Shown: in pieces, positions 2 to 7,528 of the stretch
Layout: the number at the start of each line of letters is the position of its first letter
Position numbering within the stretch: position 1 is the first letter of the stretch
Assembly (NCBI GenBank): GCA_024405215.1
Contig: JAKSPB010000020.1
Span: 1-57,474, forward strand
From: Lentisphaeria bacterium
GTDB lineage: Bacteria; Verrucomicrobiota; Lentisphaeria; Oligosphaerales; Oligosphaeraceae
DNA length: 57,474 nt
Direction of reading: 5' to 3'
Notes under the pieces: generated by a model
Seen by the model: the letters and a program-made list of their open reading frames with translations, nothing else
Database searches by the model: none
What the model was told of the DNA's origin: nothing
Position numbers and translations under genes: made by a program

Positions 2-1648
2 GACTATCGCAAACTCATCAGCGGCGGAAACTACTATGTTGACAAGACGCTGCTCATCCAGCGGTTGCTGGATCGCCGTTCTGAAGTGACACTCTATGCC
101 CGACCGAGGCGTTTTGGGAAATCATTGAACCTGTCCATGCTGGACTACTTCTTTAACGTGGATGGTTCTGGCAAGGGGCTCTTCGACGACTGTGCGCTTT
201 CACGCTCCGAACGCCCGTATCGGGAGGAGATGGGGAAGTATCCTGTCATCTCCATGAGTTTCAAGGACCTGAAGATGGACACCTACGAGGAGGCTGCGGA
301 CAATTTCCGTGCCGTCTGCGCAGAGGTTTTCGTAAAGCACCAGTATCTGTTGAATGACAGGGGACTTCTGCCGGAAGACCGCGATACTTTTCTGGCGGCC
401 ATGGGGCGAAGACTGCCCGAAAACCAATTGCCAATGGCCCTGAAGCTGCTGATGGCCAGGCTGCATGGTTTCCATGGCCAGCCTGTGGTGCTCCTGCTGG
501 ACGAATACGACGTGCCGCTCCAGACGGGATACCTGAAGGGCTACTACGATCGGGTCCTGAATCTCATCCGTGCCCTCATGAGCGCGACCTGCAAGACGAA
601 CCCCCACCTGCGCCTGGCAGTCCATACGGGGTGCCTGCGCATTTCGGGCGAGAGCATCTACACGGGCTTCAACAACCCTTCCATCAACACCGTCCTCTCC
701 TCCACCTGCGGCGACTGCTTCGGCTTCACGCCGGACGAGGTCAAGGCCCTGCTGGAATACTACGGCATGGGCGGACTCTTCGGGACGGTGCGCGAGTGGT
801 ACGACGGCTACCGCTTCGGCGACGCGGAGATCTACAACCCCTGGAGCGTCATCAGCTTCGTGGTGGAGAACCGCGACAGGAGCGCGGTGCGTCCCGAACC
901 CTACTGGGCCAACACCTCCGGCAACGATTTGCTCCAGACCCTCATCGAGGACAGCGTCAGCGGGAACGGCTCCCGCGGCGAACTGGAGACGCTGCTTTCC
1001 GGGGGGACCGTGCGCCATTCCGTACGCGAGCAGATCAACTACGCCGGCATGAAGATGGACTCCACCGCCCTCTGGACTACGCTCCTCTACACGGGCTATC
1101 TCCGCACGAAAGACTTCCCGAACCAGTTGCCAAGCCTGGACGACCTGGAGCTCCAGCTGCCCAACCGGGAGGTCGCGGAGACCCTGAAGCACCACCTTGA
1201 CATCTGGTATAAACAAGCCATTCCTACCTGGAACCGCACCGGGCTGGTCAAGGCCCTGGCCGAAGGCGATGCCGGGGAGGTGCGTTTCCAATTGAATCGG
1301 CACTTGGCACAGACCATCAGCTACCACGACCGGGCGGAGAACTTCTACCACGGCTTCATCGCCGGATTGCTTGCCTCCATCGAAGGCTGGCGTTGCGAGA
1401 GCAACCGGGAGAGTGGCAACGGTCGCCCCGACCTTGTTTTCTTCACTCGTGACTCCATGGACTGCGCAGTGGTCATTGAAATCAAGCCTGCCTCCTCTCG
1501 CGACGACCTAGCCGGAAAGGCGCGTCAGGCCTTGGACCAGGCTTCGGAGCGCAACTACGTGGCCGACTTCCGCCGCCTCTACCGCACCGTCCGCGCCTAT
1601 GGCATCGCCTGCTACAACAAGGAATGCACAGTGCTGGCGGGGGAATAG
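2..1648 (+). CDS. AAA-ATPase-like / PD-(D/E)XK nuclease family protein, 5' end cut by the window edge
   Basis: The frame is open from base 2, so the first TTG/ATG inside the window is not the true start; 548 residues are visible. The N-terminal part matches the AAA-ATPase_like family (PF09820 type): a YYVDKT motif, a Walker A-like stretch RPRRFGKS about 35 residues in, and a Walker B LLLDEYD about 175 residues in. The C-terminal about 100 residues look like the PDDEXK_9 nuclease-like domain (PF08011 type), with GRPDL followed by a hydrophobic strand and EIK. Proteins of this architecture are abundant in anaerobe genomes, often in many copies, and their cellular role is not established; a mobile-element or defence role is speculation. 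It directly precedes the AT-rich island but has the high GC of the core genome. Family call is firm, function unknown. Confidence 0.85.
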   Translation, partial: DYRKLISGGNYYVDKTLLIQRLLDRRSEVTLYARPRRFGKSLNLSMLDYFFNVDGSGKGLFDDCALSRSERPYREEMGKYPVISMSFKDLKMDTYEEAADNFRAVCAEVFVKHQYLLNDRGLLPEDRDTFLAAMGRRLPENQLPMALKLLMARLHGFHGQPVVLLLDEYDVPLQTGYLKGYYDRVLNLIRALMSATCKTNPHLRLAVHTGCLRISGESIYTGFNNPSINTVLSSTCGDCFGFTPDEVKALLEYYGMGGLFGTVREWYDGYRFGDAEIYNPWSVISFVVENRDRSAVRPEPYWANTSGNDLLQTLIEDSVSGNGSRGELETLLSGGTVRHSVREQINYAGMKMDSTALWTTLLYTGYLRTKDFPNQLPSLDDLELQLPNREVAETLKHHLDIWYKQAIPTWNRTGLVKALAEGDAGEVRFQLNRHLAQTISYHDRAENFYHGFIAGLLASIEGWRCESNRESGNGRPDLVFFTRDSMDCAVVIEIKPASSRDDLAGKARQALDQASERNYVADFRRLYRTVRAYGIACYNKECTVLAGE

Positions 1649-2094
1649 CTGGGAACCTTTGTGATAGGCCCATTTTTCTTTGTGCCACTTGCGAAAAGTG
1701 ACTGCTGAGCTATATTAACCGCATCTTCTTTGTTTTTCAACTTGGAGTGAATAGCTTGCAATTGAAAGGAAACTGAATTTTCTTCTTCTTACATAGCTGG
1801 CCAGCTCTTGATGGTCCTGGCCAGCGTCTAGTGCTGTCGTTACCCTCTAAACTACCACCTTTGACCGTAACAGATACAGCGAATGGGCATGCTCTGCTCT
1901 GGAGCGTTGCTGTTTGTGTGTATCTGTAGGCTGTGGTAGGCCTTGAGGGTAGCATGAATCGTGACGCTCTTTTTTTTGTTTTTCTGAATTCGTAGCGTTC
2001 AATTTGTCAATGGCTATCGGCTTCAATAGGATTTTTTGAATTACAAACATGGCGACTTCCTTGTATAGGACGTTGTGCATTAAGAAGGCAATAT
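1649..2094. other. Gene-free AT-rich spacer at the left border of the accessory island
   Basis: About 445 bases without a credible gene. Base composition shifts here from the GC-rich nuclease gene to the AT-rich island. It contains a perfect 12-base palindrome at 1795-1806 (AGCTGGCCAGCT) and a promoter-like pair near its right end, listed separately. I see no RNA gene or transposon end. Confidence 0.5.
2004..2032 (+). promoter_or_regulatory. Candidate sigma-70-type promoter for the 2095 cassette
   Basis: TTGTCA at 2004-2009 and TAGGAT at 2027-2032 are separated by 17 bases, about 60 bases upstream of the first gene of the cassette. A Shine-Dalgarno-like AAGAAGG precedes the ATG at 2095. This is a pattern match only. 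Confidence 0.4.
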
Positions 2095-3621
2095 ATGTCC
2101 ATGGAAAAAGAAAATCGTTCAGATAATGCCCATCTGGCAGCTATTTCAAATGACGTTGTCCAGCGGTATGGAAGTGGCGTAAAGGAACATTTTGTTGCGT
2201 ATTCGGGAATAGACAATGAAACTGGAAAACAGTTAAAGCGCAGTTTGACACAGATAGCAAAAAGCAAAGTAAATCCCGAATACCGTGATTCAAATATCAA
2301 GCAACAGGCGGGATTTTCTGCCGAAGTAAAGGAGGTGGCAAGAAGAAGGGCAGAAGAAGCCATATCAGGACGTGCTCCGACAACTGTTCGTACAGATGAC
2401 ATTCCTGGACATGTCAATGACCCATTGTTTGATATTACTTCGTCTGTTGATGGCCATGGGAATCCTATTCCAGGCAGCAGTGTGCAAATGAAATTTGTCG
2501 GAGCAAGTCCAAGTGCCGCTGTGGACAAAATGATGACCAAAGATTTTCAGAAATATATAGATGGTGATGTTAAGATGGTTGTCCCAAGTGATTATTATGA
2601 TGGGATGAAAATTGAACTTAACAATAGAATATCTGAATTAGAGAAACAAGTTGATTACCTTAAAAAGAATGGAAAATACGAAGCAGCTTCTGTCAAGCAG
2701 GCACAATTAGAAAAATGTAAGACATTGAACAAGAATTTGCAAAAAAGTAAAGTGTCAAATGCAGAAGCTCTTGAAGCCCGCAATCAACCAATTAAATCAA
2801 CCGCAAAAGATATAGCTAGGCTTGGAAATCGTGCCGGACTTGAGCAAGCCAAGATTGGAGCAGCAATCGGCGGTGGGATGTCTCTGGTAAGAAACCTGAT
2901 AGATGTTTGTCAAGGGAAGAAGAGCAAAGAAGAGGCTGCATTGGCGGTTGTCGGTGATACTGCAACTGCGGCAGGTGTGAGTTATGTCACGGCTTTTGGA
3001 GGCGCTGTCATAAAAGGCGCAGCTCAAAACTCCTCGAAAGAAATGGTCAGGCTGGCGGCAAAGACGAATTTGCCTGCTTATGTCGCTACGTCTGCCATTG
3101 AATTGACGAAGACCATCAAAGATTTCTGCTGTGGAAAAATTGATGGGGTTGAATGTCTTGACCAATTGGGCGAAAGAGGATATGGAATGGTCAATAGCGC
3201 TTTGTATGCGGCAATTGGCCAAGCTGCCATTCCCATTCCTGTGGTTGGTGCTCTGGCTGGGAGTATGATGGGGTATTTCTTAAGTTCAGCATCGTACAAT
3301 GTTCTAAAAGACAGTTTGCGTGAGGCTAAACTGGCGCGGGAGGAACGCATTCGCATCGAACGTGAAGTAGAGGAATCAATTTTGATGATACGAAAATTTC
3401 GTGCAGAATTGGAGCAAAGAATTGAACAGAATCTTTGCCAGATGCGTTCACTTTTCGAAAATGCGTTCTGTGCCATGCAACATGCCTTGAATACGGGGGA
3501 TGTTGACACCTATATTCATGCCACCAATGAGATAACAAGAAGTTTTGGAAAAAAGCCGCTTTACGAGAATGCGGCTGAATTTGATCAATTGATGCTTTCA
3601 AACGAACCATTGAGGTTCTAA
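2095..3621 (+). CDS. Uncharacterised 508-residue protein with coiled coil and C-terminal membrane segments
   Basis: No domain with an assigned function is recognised. In order there is a charged N-terminal region (1-165), a strongly predicted coiled coil (about 175-240, rich in K, E, Q and L), Gly/Ala-rich amphipathic or membrane-like stretches (about 255-330), a hydrophobic segment with paired Gly and Pro (about 378-402, AIPIPVVGALAG), and a charged helical tail with many Arg/Glu. There is no signal peptide. AAGAAGG precedes the ATG; a second ATG lies two codons later. It is AT-rich relative to the flanking core genes, which suggests transfer. It is followed 25 bases later by a glycine-rich membrane protein. 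From memory, similar gene pairs recur as 'hypothetical' in other bacteria, but I cannot verify this here. A role in defence or membrane perturbation is an inference. Confidence 0.8.
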   Translation: MSMEKENRSDNAHLAAISNDVVQRYGSGVKEHFVAYSGIDNETGKQLKRSLTQIAKSKVNPEYRDSNIKQQAGFSAEVKEVARRRAEEAISGRAPTTVRTDDIPGHVNDPLFDITSSVDGHGNPIPGSSVQMKFVGASPSAAVDKMMTKDFQKYIDGDVKMVVPSDYYDGMKIELNNRISELEKQVDYLKKNGKYEAASVKQAQLEKCKTLNKNLQKSKVSNAEALEARNQPIKSTAKDIARLGNRAGLEQAKIGAAIGGGMSLVRNLIDVCQGKKSKEEAALAVVGDTATAAGVSYVTAFGGAVIKGAAQNSSKEMVRLAAKTNLPAYVATSAIELTKTIKDFCCGKIDGVECLDQLGERGYGMVNSALYAAIGQAAIPIPVVGALAGSMMGYFLSSASYNVLKDSLREAKLAREERIRIEREVEESILMIRKFRAELEQRIEQNLCQMRSLFENAFCAMQHALNTGDVDTYIHATNEITRSFGKKPLYENAAEFDQLMLSNEPLRF

Positions 3622-3646
3622 ATCCACAACAAACAAGGAGATAACC

Positions 3647-4702
3647 ATGCCAATTCCATTTTTGATTCTCGGAGCAGCAGCTTTGGCCGGCGCAGTCGGC
3701 ATCGGAAAAGGCGCAAAAGCAATTTCTGATAATAGCAAGGCGAAATCCATAAATGGGACTGCTCAGGAGATTCTTGATGATGCGAAGCAAAATCTAAAAA
3801 TCGCCCGTGATTCCACAAAAAAATCCTTGGAAGGCTTGGGGAAAAAGAAATTGGAAATGTGCCAGGGAACTCTTTCAACCTTCGTTACAATCTTTAGCTT
3901 GATTAAAAATGTCGAGTTGAACGATAGCACTGGCGTGGCGGAATTGGCGAAATTCAGAATAGACAAGCAGAATTTCGCCCAATTGAAAGAAGTTACAATG
4001 CTTGCCGGTTCCATGGCGGGCGGAACGGTTGGTGGCGCAGTGGCAGGCGGTGCGGTTGCCTTTGGCGCGTACGGCGCAGCCACTGCATTTGCCACGGCAT
4101 CGACTGGAACGGCTATCGCAAGTCTCAGTGGAGCAGCGGCAACAAATGCCACGCTGGCTTTCTTCGGTGGCGGTTCATTGGCTGCGGGCGGCTTAGGCGT
4201 GGCAGGAGGGACGATGGTTCTGGGAGGCCTTGTGGCTGGACCGGCCTTGGCAGTTCTTGGTTTTGTCATGGGAGCCAAGGCAAGTGCGAATCTTGACAAT
4301 GCCTATGCCAATCTCGCAAAGGCGCGTGAGGCTGAAGAACAGGTTCTGACTCTCATACAGGCGTGTCATGGCATAAAAGAACGCGCCGATTTGTTTACCA
4401 ATGCGCTGATGGTCCTAGATGGACAACTGAAGCCCATGGTGCAAAGATTAAGCAATCTAATTCAGCTGGAAGGTGTGGATTACAGAAGTTATTCTGCTTC
4501 CGCCAAAAATATTGTCGCCGCTTTGGTTTCAACGGTTCAGGCGGTCAAGGCTTTGCTTGATACGCCTCTGCTGGATGAAAAAGGTGCATTGACTGCTGAA
4601 TCGGGAACGGTTTACAATGCTGTCGCCATGTATGTTGATAAGGATGAAGATACTGATGCTATTTCTATTGATGACGAAGAATGGAGCAATAATTGTTTAT
4701 AA
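3647..4702 (+). CDS. Glycine-zipper-like membrane protein of the accessory cassette
   Basis: 351 residues. AAGGAG lies 7 bases before the ATG. A short N-terminal hydrophobic segment (residues 3-19) is followed by an amphipathic helix with many Lys/Asp, then a long Gly/Ala-rich membrane region (about 120-215) with repeated small-xxx-small spacing typical of glycine-zipper helices that pack in membranes. The C-terminal third is helical and ends in an acidic tail (about 330-348). No enzymatic motif is visible. Such proteins can form pores or oligomeric channels, but that is analogy and not evidence. The 25-base spacing to the upstream gene and shared AT-rich composition indicate one operon. Confidence 0.78.
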   Translation: MPIPFLILGAAALAGAVGIGKGAKAISDNSKAKSINGTAQEILDDAKQNLKIARDSTKKSLEGLGKKKLEMCQGTLSTFVTIFSLIKNVELNDSTGVAELAKFRIDKQNFAQLKEVTMLAGSMAGGTVGGAVAGGAVAFGAYGAATAFATASTGTAIASLSGAAATNATLAFFGGGSLAAGGLGVAGGTMVLGGLVAGPALAVLGFVMGAKASANLDNAYANLAKAREAEEQVLTLIQACHGIKERADLFTNALMVLDGQLKPMVQRLSNLIQLEGVDYRSYSASAKNIVAALVSTVQAVKALLDTPLLDEKGALTAESGTVYNAVAMYVDKDEDTDAISIDDEEWSNNCL

Positions 4703-4722
4703 CTGAAAAATGCGGTTAAATC

Positions 4723-4995
4723 ATGCATTTTAAATGTGACAAATGTGGATTATGCTGCAAGTTGCTAAAGAGAATTCCGCAACTTGCAGCATTTGACCGT
4801 GGCGATGGGGTTTGCATTCACCTCAAGGATAATCTATGTGATATCTACCCTAATCGACCGATGATTTGCAATGTGGAGAAAATGTTTTCTTCATTTTCAA
4901 AACAGATGTCAGAGGAGGAATATTTGACTATGATGCGAGAATCTTGTCAGTTCATCAAACAGCATTTTAATGAACTGCAAACGGAAGATTGGTAA
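4723..4995 (+). CDS. YkgJ-type CxxCxxCC cysteine-cluster protein
   Basis: 90 residues. The N-terminal motif CDKCGLCC, followed by a Cys in GVCIHL, then LCDIYPNRPMIC, matches the zinc/iron-chelating cysteine cluster family (PF03692, YkgJ). Members are thought to bind Zn or an Fe-S centre and some may modify partner proteins; biochemical roles are poorly defined. The gene starts 20 bases after the glycine-rich protein and shares its composition, so it is probably the third gene of the same transcript. There is no clear Shine-Dalgarno, which suggests coupling to upstream translation. It is short for the family, carrying the core motif only. Confidence 0.82.
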   Translation: MHFKCDKCGLCCKLLKRIPQLAAFDRGDGVCIHLKDNLCDIYPNRPMICNVEKMFSSFSKQMSEEEYLTMMRESCQFIKQHFNELQTEDW

Positions 4996-5293
4996 TTTTT
5001 ATGACGGTAAAAGAAACAAGAGGAGAGTGTATGGGGAGAACACGTTCCGGGAAAAAACAAGGAAGTCCAGGGCAGCCTGTCTTTTGTGGGGACGGCGCGT
5101 TTCCGCCCAAGCGTGGCGAGCGGCGGCGGGTAACCGCAGGTCGAGCGACTTGGCCGTTGTAGTCTTGGTGAAAGCGGAAGCGGAATTTGTTGATCGGCAG
5201 TCATATATACATCCAGATCCTAAAAAAGTCGACCCAATGTCAAGCAATTCTTGATTGCATGAAAGAGTTCTGTCCTTGAGCGGATGGGATTGG

Positions 5294-6020: not shown

Positions 6021-6182
6021 TTTTTTTTGCTCTCTGTTTTGCGGTCGTTCTGTCTCTCTGCGCTCTTTTGAGGAGACGCAGAGGGGCGCTGCATGGGAGG
6101 ATTTGCTTGGGGAAAATGCCTTGAGACGGCGAAAATGCCAAGGCGACTTTTGCAAAAGGCGTTATATTATGCTCATTGCCCA
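6021..6182. other. Spacer between higBA and the TPP riboswitch
   Basis: It contains a stem-loop CTCTGCG (6056-6062) / CGCAGAG (6077-6083) not followed by a U-tract, so it is at best a weak terminator. A TATATTAT stretch at 6163-6170 could be the -10 of the riboswitch transcript. I see no gene. Confidence 0.35.
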
Positions 6183-6258
6183 CCGGGGTGCTGTGCATCG
6201 GATGTGCACGGCTGAGATCAAACCCGTTAACCTGAACTGAGTAATGTCAGCGTAGGAA
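6183..6258 (+). ncRNA. TPP (THI-box) riboswitch aptamer
   Basis: The diagnostic THI elements occur in order: GGGGTGC (6185-6191), a P3 stem built from GTGCA/TGTGCAC, GGCTGAGA with ACCC, and AACCTGA followed by a CTG-AGTAATGTCAGCGTAG 3' block that fits the conserved TPP-contacting helix and P1. The closing strand ends at GGAAG just before 6260. The downstream gene is a predicted thiamine-precursor transporter, the expected regulon. TPP binding should lower its expression. Confidence 0.93.
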
Positions 6259-6284
6259 GATGAACAGTGAATATGCCAACTGCA

Positions 6285-6319
6285 TTCCATCTGATTGCCG
6301 CGACATTGGATGGAAGATG
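6285..6319 (+). promoter_or_regulatory. Putative riboswitch expression platform: hairpin masking the cytX ribosome-binding site
   Basis: TTCCATCTGA (6285-6294) can pair with TTGGATGGAA (6306-6315), a 10-pair helix with two G-U wobbles and an 11-base loop. The 3' arm contains the GGATGGAAG Shine-Dalgarno region directly before the ATG at 6317. There is no U-tract, so control would be translational. The competing pairing with the aptamer was not worked out. Confidence 0.45.
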
Positions 6320-7528
6320 AAAAACACAAAGCAAACGACATTATTGGGACATAGCCTGATCTGGTTTGGAGCGGCGGTGTCCATCGCGGAAATTCTAACT
6401 GGGACGCTCTTTGCGCCAATGGGCTTCTGGAAGGCCTTCTGGGCGATAGTCCTGGGACATCTGCTGGGCTGCCTGCTGGTGTATTGCTGCGGCGTCATCA
6501 GCGCCCGGAATGGCGCCTCCGCAATGGAGAGCGCCAAGAATACCTTCGGCGGTTGCGGCGGGCAGATTTTTGCAGGACTCAATGTGCTGCAGCTTGTCGG
6601 CTGGACTGCGGTCATGATTTCAGCGGGCGGGCAGGCAGCCAATGGCATCTGCCGGCTTTTCGGCTGGAGCTACTCCTGGCACATCCTGATCTGCGCGATG
6701 ATTCTTTTGTGGCTTCAGCTGAAGTTCCGGCTTCTGGAAAAGGCGAATCTGGTGACCATGCTCCTGCTTTTCGGACTGTCGCTCCTGCTTTCCCGGGTTG
6801 TCTTCAAGGGGGCATTGGTCACTCCTGCCGCGGACGGCGCCCTTTCTTTTGGCGAAGCGCTGGAACTTTCCATCGCCATGCCTGTCTCATGGTTGCCGAT
6901 TGTCGGCGACTACACGCGGGACGCCTCTCGTCCCCGCCTTGCATCCATGGTCAGCGCCGGCGTGTATTTCGCCGTCTCCTGCTGGATGTATCTCGTGGGG
7001 CTTTGCGCCGTCCTCTGCCTGGGAGAAACCGACATCGCGGTCATTCTGCAGAATGCTGGCCTGGGAGTGGCCGCGCTGCTCATCGTCATTCTTTCGACCG
7101 TCACGACTACCTATCTTGATGTCTTCTCGGCAGGAATAAGCTTTGGGAGCATTTTCCCGAAAATCAATTTCCGGATTGCCGCCGGCTGTGTCTGCCTGCT
7201 GGGGACCATTCTTGCCATGGTTTGCGATACCAGTTCCTTTGAGACATTCCTGTACTGGATCGGATCGGTCTTCGTGCCGATGGCAACCATCCAGATCGTC
7301 GATGAACTCCTCCTGCGCCAACGGCATTCCACCAGGCACAACCTGCTGCTGTGGCTGGCCGGTTTTCTCATCTACCGTGTTTTCCTGCAGTTGAATCTTC
7401 CCTGCGGAAGCACGATTCCAGACATCCTTTTGACTGCGTCGCTCAGCTTTGCAATCAAAAATAAAGGCATCTTGGCAGACGGCGACAGTCCCGTATCCCA
7501 ACAAGACTCCGCCCATGAAGGACCGTAA
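6317..7528 (+). CDS. cytX: CytX-type hydroxymethylpyrimidine (thiamine precursor) transporter, NCS1 family
   Basis: 403 residues from the ATG at 6317. An earlier in-frame ATG at 6260 abuts the riboswitch and would add 19 residues that look untypical, so I prefer 6317. The N-terminus LIWFGAAVSIAEILTGTLFAP is the signature start of CytX proteins, and about 12 membrane segments follow. SWLPIVGDYTR near residue 200 is a conserved NCS1 motif. CytX proteins are predicted importers of hydroxymethylpyrimidine for thiamine salvage; the TPP riboswitch just upstream supports that assignment. The hemolysin III-like gene overlaps its 3' end by 14 bases. Confidence 0.9.
   Translation: MKNTKQTTLLGHSLIWFGAAVSIAEILTGTLFAPMGFWKAFWAIVLGHLLGCLLVYCCGVISARNGASAMESAKNTFGGCGGQIFAGLNVLQLVGWTAVMISAGGQAANGICRLFGWSYSWHILICAMILLWLQLKFRLLEKANLVTMLLLFGLSLLLSRVVFKGALVTPAADGALSFGEALELSIAMPVSWLPIVGDYTRDASRPRLASMVSAGVYFAVSCWMYLVGLCAVLCLGETDIAVILQNAGLGVAALLIVILSTVTTTYLDVFSAGISFGSIFPKINFRIAAGCVCLLGTILAMVCDTSSFETFLYWIGSVFVPMATIQIVDELLLRQRHSTRHNLLLWLAGFLIYRVFLQLNLPCGSTIPDILLTASLSFAIKNKGILADGDSPVSQQDSAHEGP

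What the first reader, a model, noticed from the sequence alone, without database searches (positions are those of the whole stretch)
2004..4995. Uncharacterised three-gene cassette: coiled-coil/membrane protein, glycine-zipper protein and CxxCxxCC protein
Seen: three tightly spaced genes (gaps of 25 and 20 bases) in an AT-rich island next to a higBA pair and an AAA-ATPase/nuclease-like gene. The first combines a coiled coil with a hydrophobic Gly/Pro segment; the second has a long Gly/Ala-rich membrane region; the third is a YkgJ-type metal-binding protein. No enzymatic domain is evident. Known: glycine-zipper helices oligomerise in membranes, and toxin-antitoxin pairs often sit in accessory islands. 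Inference: this may be a membrane-acting defence or competition system, with the Cys protein as a metal- or redox-sensing component.
Basis: partly seen in the sequence, partly recalled or inferred. Interest (0 to 1): 0.72.

Follow-up and report, generated by a model that had tools for sequence, protein, structure and literature searches.

The report
Membrane-tethered nuclease-like phage-defence candidate
Three linked genes form a widespread, horizontally mobile bacterial cassette, listed until now only as an untested phage-defence candidate, whose main protein looks like a DNA-cutting enzyme anchored in the cell membrane, accompanied by a membrane partner and a metal-binding protein that may control it.

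Summary
Three tightly spaced genes lie in a low-GC island (44.7% against 58%). P1 and P2 match PADLOC's untested two-gene phage-defence candidate PDC-M09 (B and A). P3 is a CxxCxxCC protein. Of 81 P1 loci from about a dozen phyla, every one with enough sequence has P2 beside P1. P3 recurs in 42, a TerB-like gene in 48 (usually between P1 and P2), a WYL regulator in 27. Flanking genes are rich in known defence genes; matched control regions are not. 'No enzymatic domain' looks wrong: P1's N-terminal domain has a PD-(D/E)XK-like motif (E77, D113, Q131xK133; 75-76 of 76 homologues), alpha-beta-beta-beta-alpha-beta order in a confident AlphaFold model, and weak in-register similarity to PDDEXK_9. 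In Megasphaera paralogues the same membrane/coiled-coil scaffold carries an HNH nuclease domain, and one has a ferredoxin in P3's place. I infer a membrane-tethered nuclease acting near the membrane on invading DNA, with P2 as membrane partner and P3 (and TerB) as metal or redox control. Nuclease activity, membrane location and phage defence are untested, and fold searches gave no significant hit. The locus is a variant of a known candidate; the domain swap, extra subunits and mechanism are what this report adds.

The parts
2095..3621 (+). P1, PDC-M09B homologue: PD-(D/E)XK-like N-terminal domain, coiled coil, 3-4 helix hydrophobic region, C-terminal coiled coil (508 aa)
   Evidence: ORF; PADLOC PDC-M09B 8.2e-21; AF2 mean pLDDT 85.7; 76-sequence alignment A5
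2272..2619 (+). PD-(D/E)XK-like nuclease domain of P1 (residues ~60-175); putative catalytic E77 (2323-2325), D113 (2431-2433), Q131 (2485-2487), K133 (2491-2493); invariant Y154 (2554-2556)
   Evidence: E77, D113, Y154 76/76, Q131 and K133 75/76; alpha-beta-beta-beta-alpha-beta order in the model; hhalign to PDDEXK_9 P=0.0087 with D and (Q/E)xK in register. No significant Pfam or PDB match
2587..2745 (+). P1 coiled coil (residues 165-217)
   Evidence: helices 165-191 and 195-214 in the model
2824..3327 (+). P1 hydrophobic Gly/Pro-rich membrane region (residues ~244-411)
   Evidence: hydropathy; model helices
3647..4702 (+). P2, PDC-M09A homologue: long helices around a Gly/Ala-rich uncharged membrane segment (351 aa)
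   Evidence: ORF; PADLOC PDC-M09A 7.4e-27; AF2 mean pLDDT 75.7 (low in the hydrophobic part); hydropathy
4019..4276 (+). P2 uncharged Gly/Ala-rich segment (residues 125-210), the most conserved part of P2
4723..4995 (+). P3, CxxCxxCC (YkgJ-type) protein with 8 conserved Cys (90 aa)
   Evidence: Pfam PF03692 8.2e-7; Cys 5, 8, 11, 12, 31, 39, 49 in 39/39 and Cys75 in 38/39

Best explanation
This is a variant of the candidate anti-phage system PDC-M09. P1 is, most likely, a membrane-tethered DNA nuclease: a PD-(D/E)XK-like domain held by a coiled coil and a hydrophobic helical region at the inner membrane. P2 is its membrane partner: long helices flanking a Gly/Ala-rich membrane segment that could oligomerise. 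P3, and in other genomes a TerB protein, is a metal- or Fe-S-binding part that holds the nuclease inactive or senses the trigger. Infection would release the nuclease so that it cuts foreign DNA near the membrane, perhaps as it enters. SHOWN: recurring operon, PADLOC membership, defence-rich flanks, conserved motif residues, swap of the N-terminal domain for HNH, Cys conservation, ferredoxin in P3's place, CxxCxxCC fused to a BnzA-like region. INFERRED: nuclease activity, membrane location, sensing by P3, timing and target.
For: PADLOC PDC-M09B 8e-21 and PDC-M09A 7e-27. P2 next to P1 in all 79 of 81 loci where sequence allows; P3 in 42, TerB-like in 48, WYL in 27. Flanking genes hit 167 PADLOC families at 1e-15, including HerA, DrmC, HEC-05, type I methylase and specificity subunit, type IV restriction enzyme; control regions of the same genomes hit 9, mostly helicase-like. 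Motif residues conserved in 75-76 of 76, fold order right, PDDEXK_9 match in catalytic register at P=0.0087, about the same as Mrr against PDDEXK_9 (0.01); 1 of 100 column permutations as good; 12 unrelated families P>=0.19. P1-type scaffold with a GmrSD_C HNH domain (8.9e-8, above cut-off) in L187, and a homologous region in L186 (41% over 170 aa). Fer4_15 protein (1.8e-9) in P3's place in L187. In four Bacillota loci P3 is 233 aa; in L102 its C-terminal part hits PADLOC BnzA (4.9e-10), and no separate TerB gene is present. Phylum-mixed tree. Mode precedent: SNIPE, a membrane-bound nuclease (PMC13190303).
Against: No significant Pfam or PDB sequence match for the P1 domain and no Foldseek match at E<=0.001 for P1 or P2. 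The comparison with Mrr was negative. P3 is missing in 24 loci that have room for it, so it is not essential to every version. P1's hydrophobic segments are only moderately hydrophobic (maximum 1.66) and P2's hydrophobic part is modelled with low confidence. No experiment on this family was found in the papers searched. Rare in phages and plasmids held. Counting families is not counting genes, since one defence gene can hit many models.
Confidence: 0.5

Rival explanations
1. Abortive-infection pore: P2 (with P1) is a cell-killing membrane pore of the alpha-helical type, released by P1's sensing of phage, with P3/TerB as redox or metal trigger; the P1 domain binds rather than cuts DNA.
For: P2 has long helices around an uncharged Gly/Ala-rich segment; ClyA pore chains are among its weak Foldseek hits (E 0.25-0.26) and SmhB/XaxA among P1's.
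Against: Those hits are not significant, and similar scores go to microtubule coiled coils. The HNH swap on the P1 scaffold and conserved catalytic-type residues favour cutting.
Confidence: 0.2
2. General envelope-stress or metal-stress module (Ter/YkgJ-like), not aimed at phage: membrane proteins P1 and P2 with metal-binding P3 and TerB sense membrane damage; its position in islands reflects mobility only.
For: TerB and CxxCxxCC domains occur in metal or stress contexts (general knowledge); P3 and TerB recur.
Against: Defence-rich flanks against controls, WYL regulators next to the operon, PADLOC listing, nuclease-domain swap.
Confidence: 0.13
3. Interbacterial competition: P1 is a nuclease toxin delivered to rivals, P2/P3 help export or immunity.
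For: Toxin-like nuclease domain swapping on a common scaffold; hydrophobic segments.
Against: No export marker or immunity-like gene was recognised; the swapped domain is N-terminal whereas polymorphic toxins usually carry it C-terminally (general knowledge); defence-type flanks and WYL regulator.
Confidence: 0.06

Closest known systems
PDC-M09 (PADLOC phage-defence candidate, A+B)
   Same: Both proteins match their models and are adjacent.
   Different: PADLOC models found here cover only A and B; the CxxCxxCC protein, TerB-like gene and WYL regulator that recur with them gave no PDC-M09 model. No TerB or WYL in the window's own copy.
SNIPE (PD-lambda-1), PMC13190303
   Same: Works-like analogue: nuclease domain plus membrane anchor and helical extensions in one protein.
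   Different: SNIPE is a single gene with GIY-YIG plus DUF4041 and one membrane pass; here PD-(D/E)XK-like or HNH in the N-terminal part, several hydrophobic helices, and a constant partner P2. No sequence relation found.
Bunzi and Shango (TerB-containing systems, PMC10952713)
   Same: TerB domain in the same operon in many relatives; P3 of a Bacillota locus has a BnzA-like C-terminal part.
   Different: No BnzA, BnzB or Shango match for P1, P2 or P3 of the window.
GmrSD type IV restriction (HNH part)
   Same: Paralogous P1 in L187 has the GmrSD_C domain.
   Different: Only in the paralogue; on a membrane scaffold, and only this domain of GmrSD was matched.
YkgJ / CxxCxxCC family (PF03692)
   Same: P3 is above the family cut-off with 8 conserved Cys.
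   Different: Bound metal and function unknown in the family (Pfam: putative zinc- or iron-chelating); here tied to a defence-like operon.

Membership tests
PDC-M09 | M09A and M09B proteins encoded side by side | tested here: met
   P2=PDC-M09A 7.4e-27, P1=PDC-M09B 8.2e-21, 25 bases apart
PDC-M09 | anti-phage activity | not testable with these tools
   PDCs described as unvalidated (PMC12988326)
PD-(D/E)XK nuclease superfamily | conserved D...(D/E/Q)xK catalytic motif, often with helix-1 E | tested here: met
   E77 and D113 76/76, Q131 and K133 75/76
PD-(D/E)XK nuclease superfamily | alpha-beta-beta-beta-alpha-beta core fold | tested here: inconclusive
   Right order in the AF2 model; Foldseek of the whole chain gave no nuclease hit; coordinates not available for a domain-only search
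PD-(D/E)XK nuclease superfamily | profile similarity to known families | tested here: inconclusive
   PDDEXK_9 P=0.0087 in register, Mrr_cat negative; no Pfam hit
SNIPE | GIY-YIG nuclease plus DUF4041 | tested here: not met
   No such Pfam match in P1-P3
Bunzi | BnzA and BnzB proteins | tested here: not met
   No match for the window proteins
CxxCxxCC (YkgJ) family | Pfam PF03692 above cut-off, CxxCxxCC motif | tested here: met
   30.1 bits against 23; Cys 39/39
Alpha-helical pore-forming toxins (ClyA type) | significant fold match | tested here: not met
   Best ClyA hit E 0.25
Membrane protein | location in the membrane | not testable with these tools
   Only hydropathy and model

The most novel reading that the evidence does not exclude
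PDC-M09 and its paralogues are one superfamily of multi-subunit, membrane-anchored nucleases in which the cutting domain is exchanged (PD-(D/E)XK-like, HNH) on a constant scaffold, and a Cys-cluster subunit (CxxCxxCC, CxxCxxCC fused to a BnzA-like part, or ferredoxin) gates it by sensing metal or redox change at the membrane during phage entry.
Probability: 0.3. Interest if true: 0.85.

Novelty: new variant of a known kind. Interest (0 to 1): 0.6.

Why it matters
PDC-M09 is an untested database entry without a stated mechanism in anything I could find. The nuclease-like motif, the HNH swap, and the recurring metal-binding and TerB subunits turn it into a testable model and name the residues to mutate. 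If right, it would add a multi-subunit, modular case to the recently recognised strategy of cutting phage DNA at the membrane, and give the widespread CxxCxxCC and TerB families a concrete role in immunity.

Tried and rejected
Single-sequence genome and viral scans for P1 and P2 found nothing; an alignment of 8 P1 homologues worked. The P2 profile found no viral relative and the P1 profile found one (L105). No match in phage records, two plasmids, none in E. coli by DNA. Papers: no mention of PDC-M09 or of YkgJ-family proteins with phage defence; TerB/WYL/YkgJ searches gave only background. PDB sequence searches for P1, P2 and P3 gave no credible hit. Foldseek of P1 against viral structures put tape-measure proteins near the top, but without significance (best E 0.2), so I draw nothing from it. 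The Mrr test was negative. A first hhalign run used wrongly oriented family sequences and was redone. Shedu (PF14082) could not be compared: no member in the genomes searched. Considered and dropped: Zorya-like motor (no such match), partnership with the AAA-ATPase/PDDEXK_9 neighbour (multi-copy family, though it also lies upstream of P1 in relative L017), partnership with higBA (not recurrent). The radical-SAM plus 70-aa gene beside L019 looked like a peptide-modification pair but is seen in one genome only.

Full report
OBSERVATION. Three genes on the + strand, 2095-3621, 3647-4702 and 4723-4995, with gaps of 25 and 20 bases, GC 44.7% against 58.2%. P1 and P2 each occur once in this genome. 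Promoter-like and terminator-like sites are near chance level, so no promoter is assigned.

WHAT THE PROTEINS MATCH. Pfam, NCBIfam and PHROGs give nothing credible for P1 and P2. PADLOC gives PDC-M09B for P1 (8.2e-21) and PDC-M09A for P2 (7.4e-27). Such candidates come from guilt-by-embedding and are described as unvalidated (PMC12988326). P3 is a CxxCxxCC protein.

CO-OCCURRENCE. A profile of P1 found 119 relatives in genome contigs, of which 80 were kept, plus one in IMG/VR. Of these 81 loci, 79 have P2 nearby, mostly just downstream of P1 (in L065 it precedes P1). The two exceptions are L075, where P1 itself is cut by the contig end, and L105, whose contig ends 591 bases after P1. P3 is in 42 loci; 24 loci with room lack it. 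A TerB-like gene is in 48, in most of them between P1 and P2 (Pfam TerB over cut-off for three between-gene representatives and for an upstream one, weaker or absent for others). A WYL regulator is in 27. The window copy lacks TerB and WYL. The nearest relatives, L017 and L018 from one genome of the same family, have the same P1-P2-P3 order. In four Bacillota loci P3 is 233 aa with an added C-terminal region; for L102 that region hits PADLOC BnzA. The P1 tree mixes phyla (19 label changes against a minimum of 11; quick tree), which suggests transfer but does not prove it.

DEFENCE CONTEXT. 130 genes flanking 24 cassettes on long contigs hit 167 PADLOC families at 1e-15, among them HerA (6e-246), type I methylase (9e-291) and specificity subunits, DrmC, HEC-05 and a type IV restriction enzyme. 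117 genes from regions far away in the same genomes hit 9, mostly helicase-like, best 3e-34. Families are not genes, so the ratio overstates the enrichment, but the kinds of hit differ clearly.

IS P1 A NUCLEASE? In 76 homologues E77, D113 and Y154 are invariant and Q131 and K133 are kept in 75. The AlphaFold model (mean pLDDT 85.7; most blocks of residues 21-250 above 90) has helix 61-90 with E77, strands at 98-99, 114-115 and 129-132 beside D113 and QxK, helices 139-156, and a strand 160-163: the order of the PD-(D/E)XK core. Profile comparison with PDDEXK_9 aligned D with D and QxK with ExK (P=0.0087); Mrr against PDDEXK_9, two accepted members, gives 0.01; one of 100 column permutations reached the score; 12 unrelated families gave P of 0.19 or more; P1 against Mrr gave nothing. 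Separately, paralogues in Megasphaera match only P1's C-terminal part (23-27% identity) and, in L187, carry a GmrSD_C HNH domain in the N-terminal region (8.9e-8); L186 has a homologous region. A nuclease-type domain in the same position on the same scaffold is independent support for a nuclease in P1. I put the probability of a nuclease domain at about 0.65-0.7.

P2 AND P3. P2's model has long helices (11-83, 212-275) around an uncharged Gly/Ala-rich segment that is modelled poorly. No significant fold match was found for either P1 or P2. P3 has eight conserved Cys, and in L187 a 337-aa Fer4_15 protein sits in its place: both point to a metal or Fe-S subunit, without saying which.

MECHANISM. 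Best reading: a membrane-tethered nuclease complex under metal or redox control. SNIPE shows that a membrane-bound nuclease can cut phage DNA during injection and that tethering prevents self-cutting (PMC13190303). That is an analogy of working, not kinship: the SNIPE domains are absent. Timing at entry is the least certain step (about 0.3).

VERDICT. A real, conserved, probably defensive operon; a variant of a listed candidate, with a new mechanistic model that is testable by a few point mutations.

Noticed in passing
window 6174-6275 (+): TPP riboswitch (Rfam RF00059, 55.8 bits), directly before a 422-aa membrane protein gene (6260-7528) that is likely a thiamine-precursor transporter.
   Followed up: no
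window 65-1648: AAA-ATPase_like plus PDDEXK_9 gene; the PDDEXK_9 family has 10 matches in this genome and up to 17 in a relative, and a copy also lies upstream of P1 in L017.
   Followed up: partly
L187 6628-14672: P1-like protein with HNH domain, short P2-like protein, ferredoxin-domain protein, then a dynamin-like GTPase (Dynamin_N 1.5e-8): a related but different operon.
   Followed up: partly
L185 4287-7844, L186 6507-10046: Second paralogue type in Megasphaera: HNH-like P1, P2-like protein with extra C-terminal membrane helices, and TerB-like gene.
   Followed up: partly
L019 12721-13813: 70-aa gene followed by a radical SAM gene (1.1e-17) right after P3, possibly a modified-peptide pair.
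   Followed up: no
L042, L055, L057 downstream of P2: DUF3944/YaaW-like protein next to P2 in Bacteroidota loci (L057: PF13099 1.3e-12).
   Followed up: no
window 5060-5200: GC-rich stretch with no clear gene; parts have 76-78% matches on two other contigs of the genome, possibly a dispersed repeat remnant.
   Followed up: partly
L022 9412-11292 (G271): Dynamin-like protein with a weak C-terminal match to PDC-M09B (7.9e-6) in a cluster of Hsp70-like and GTPase genes.
   Followed up: no
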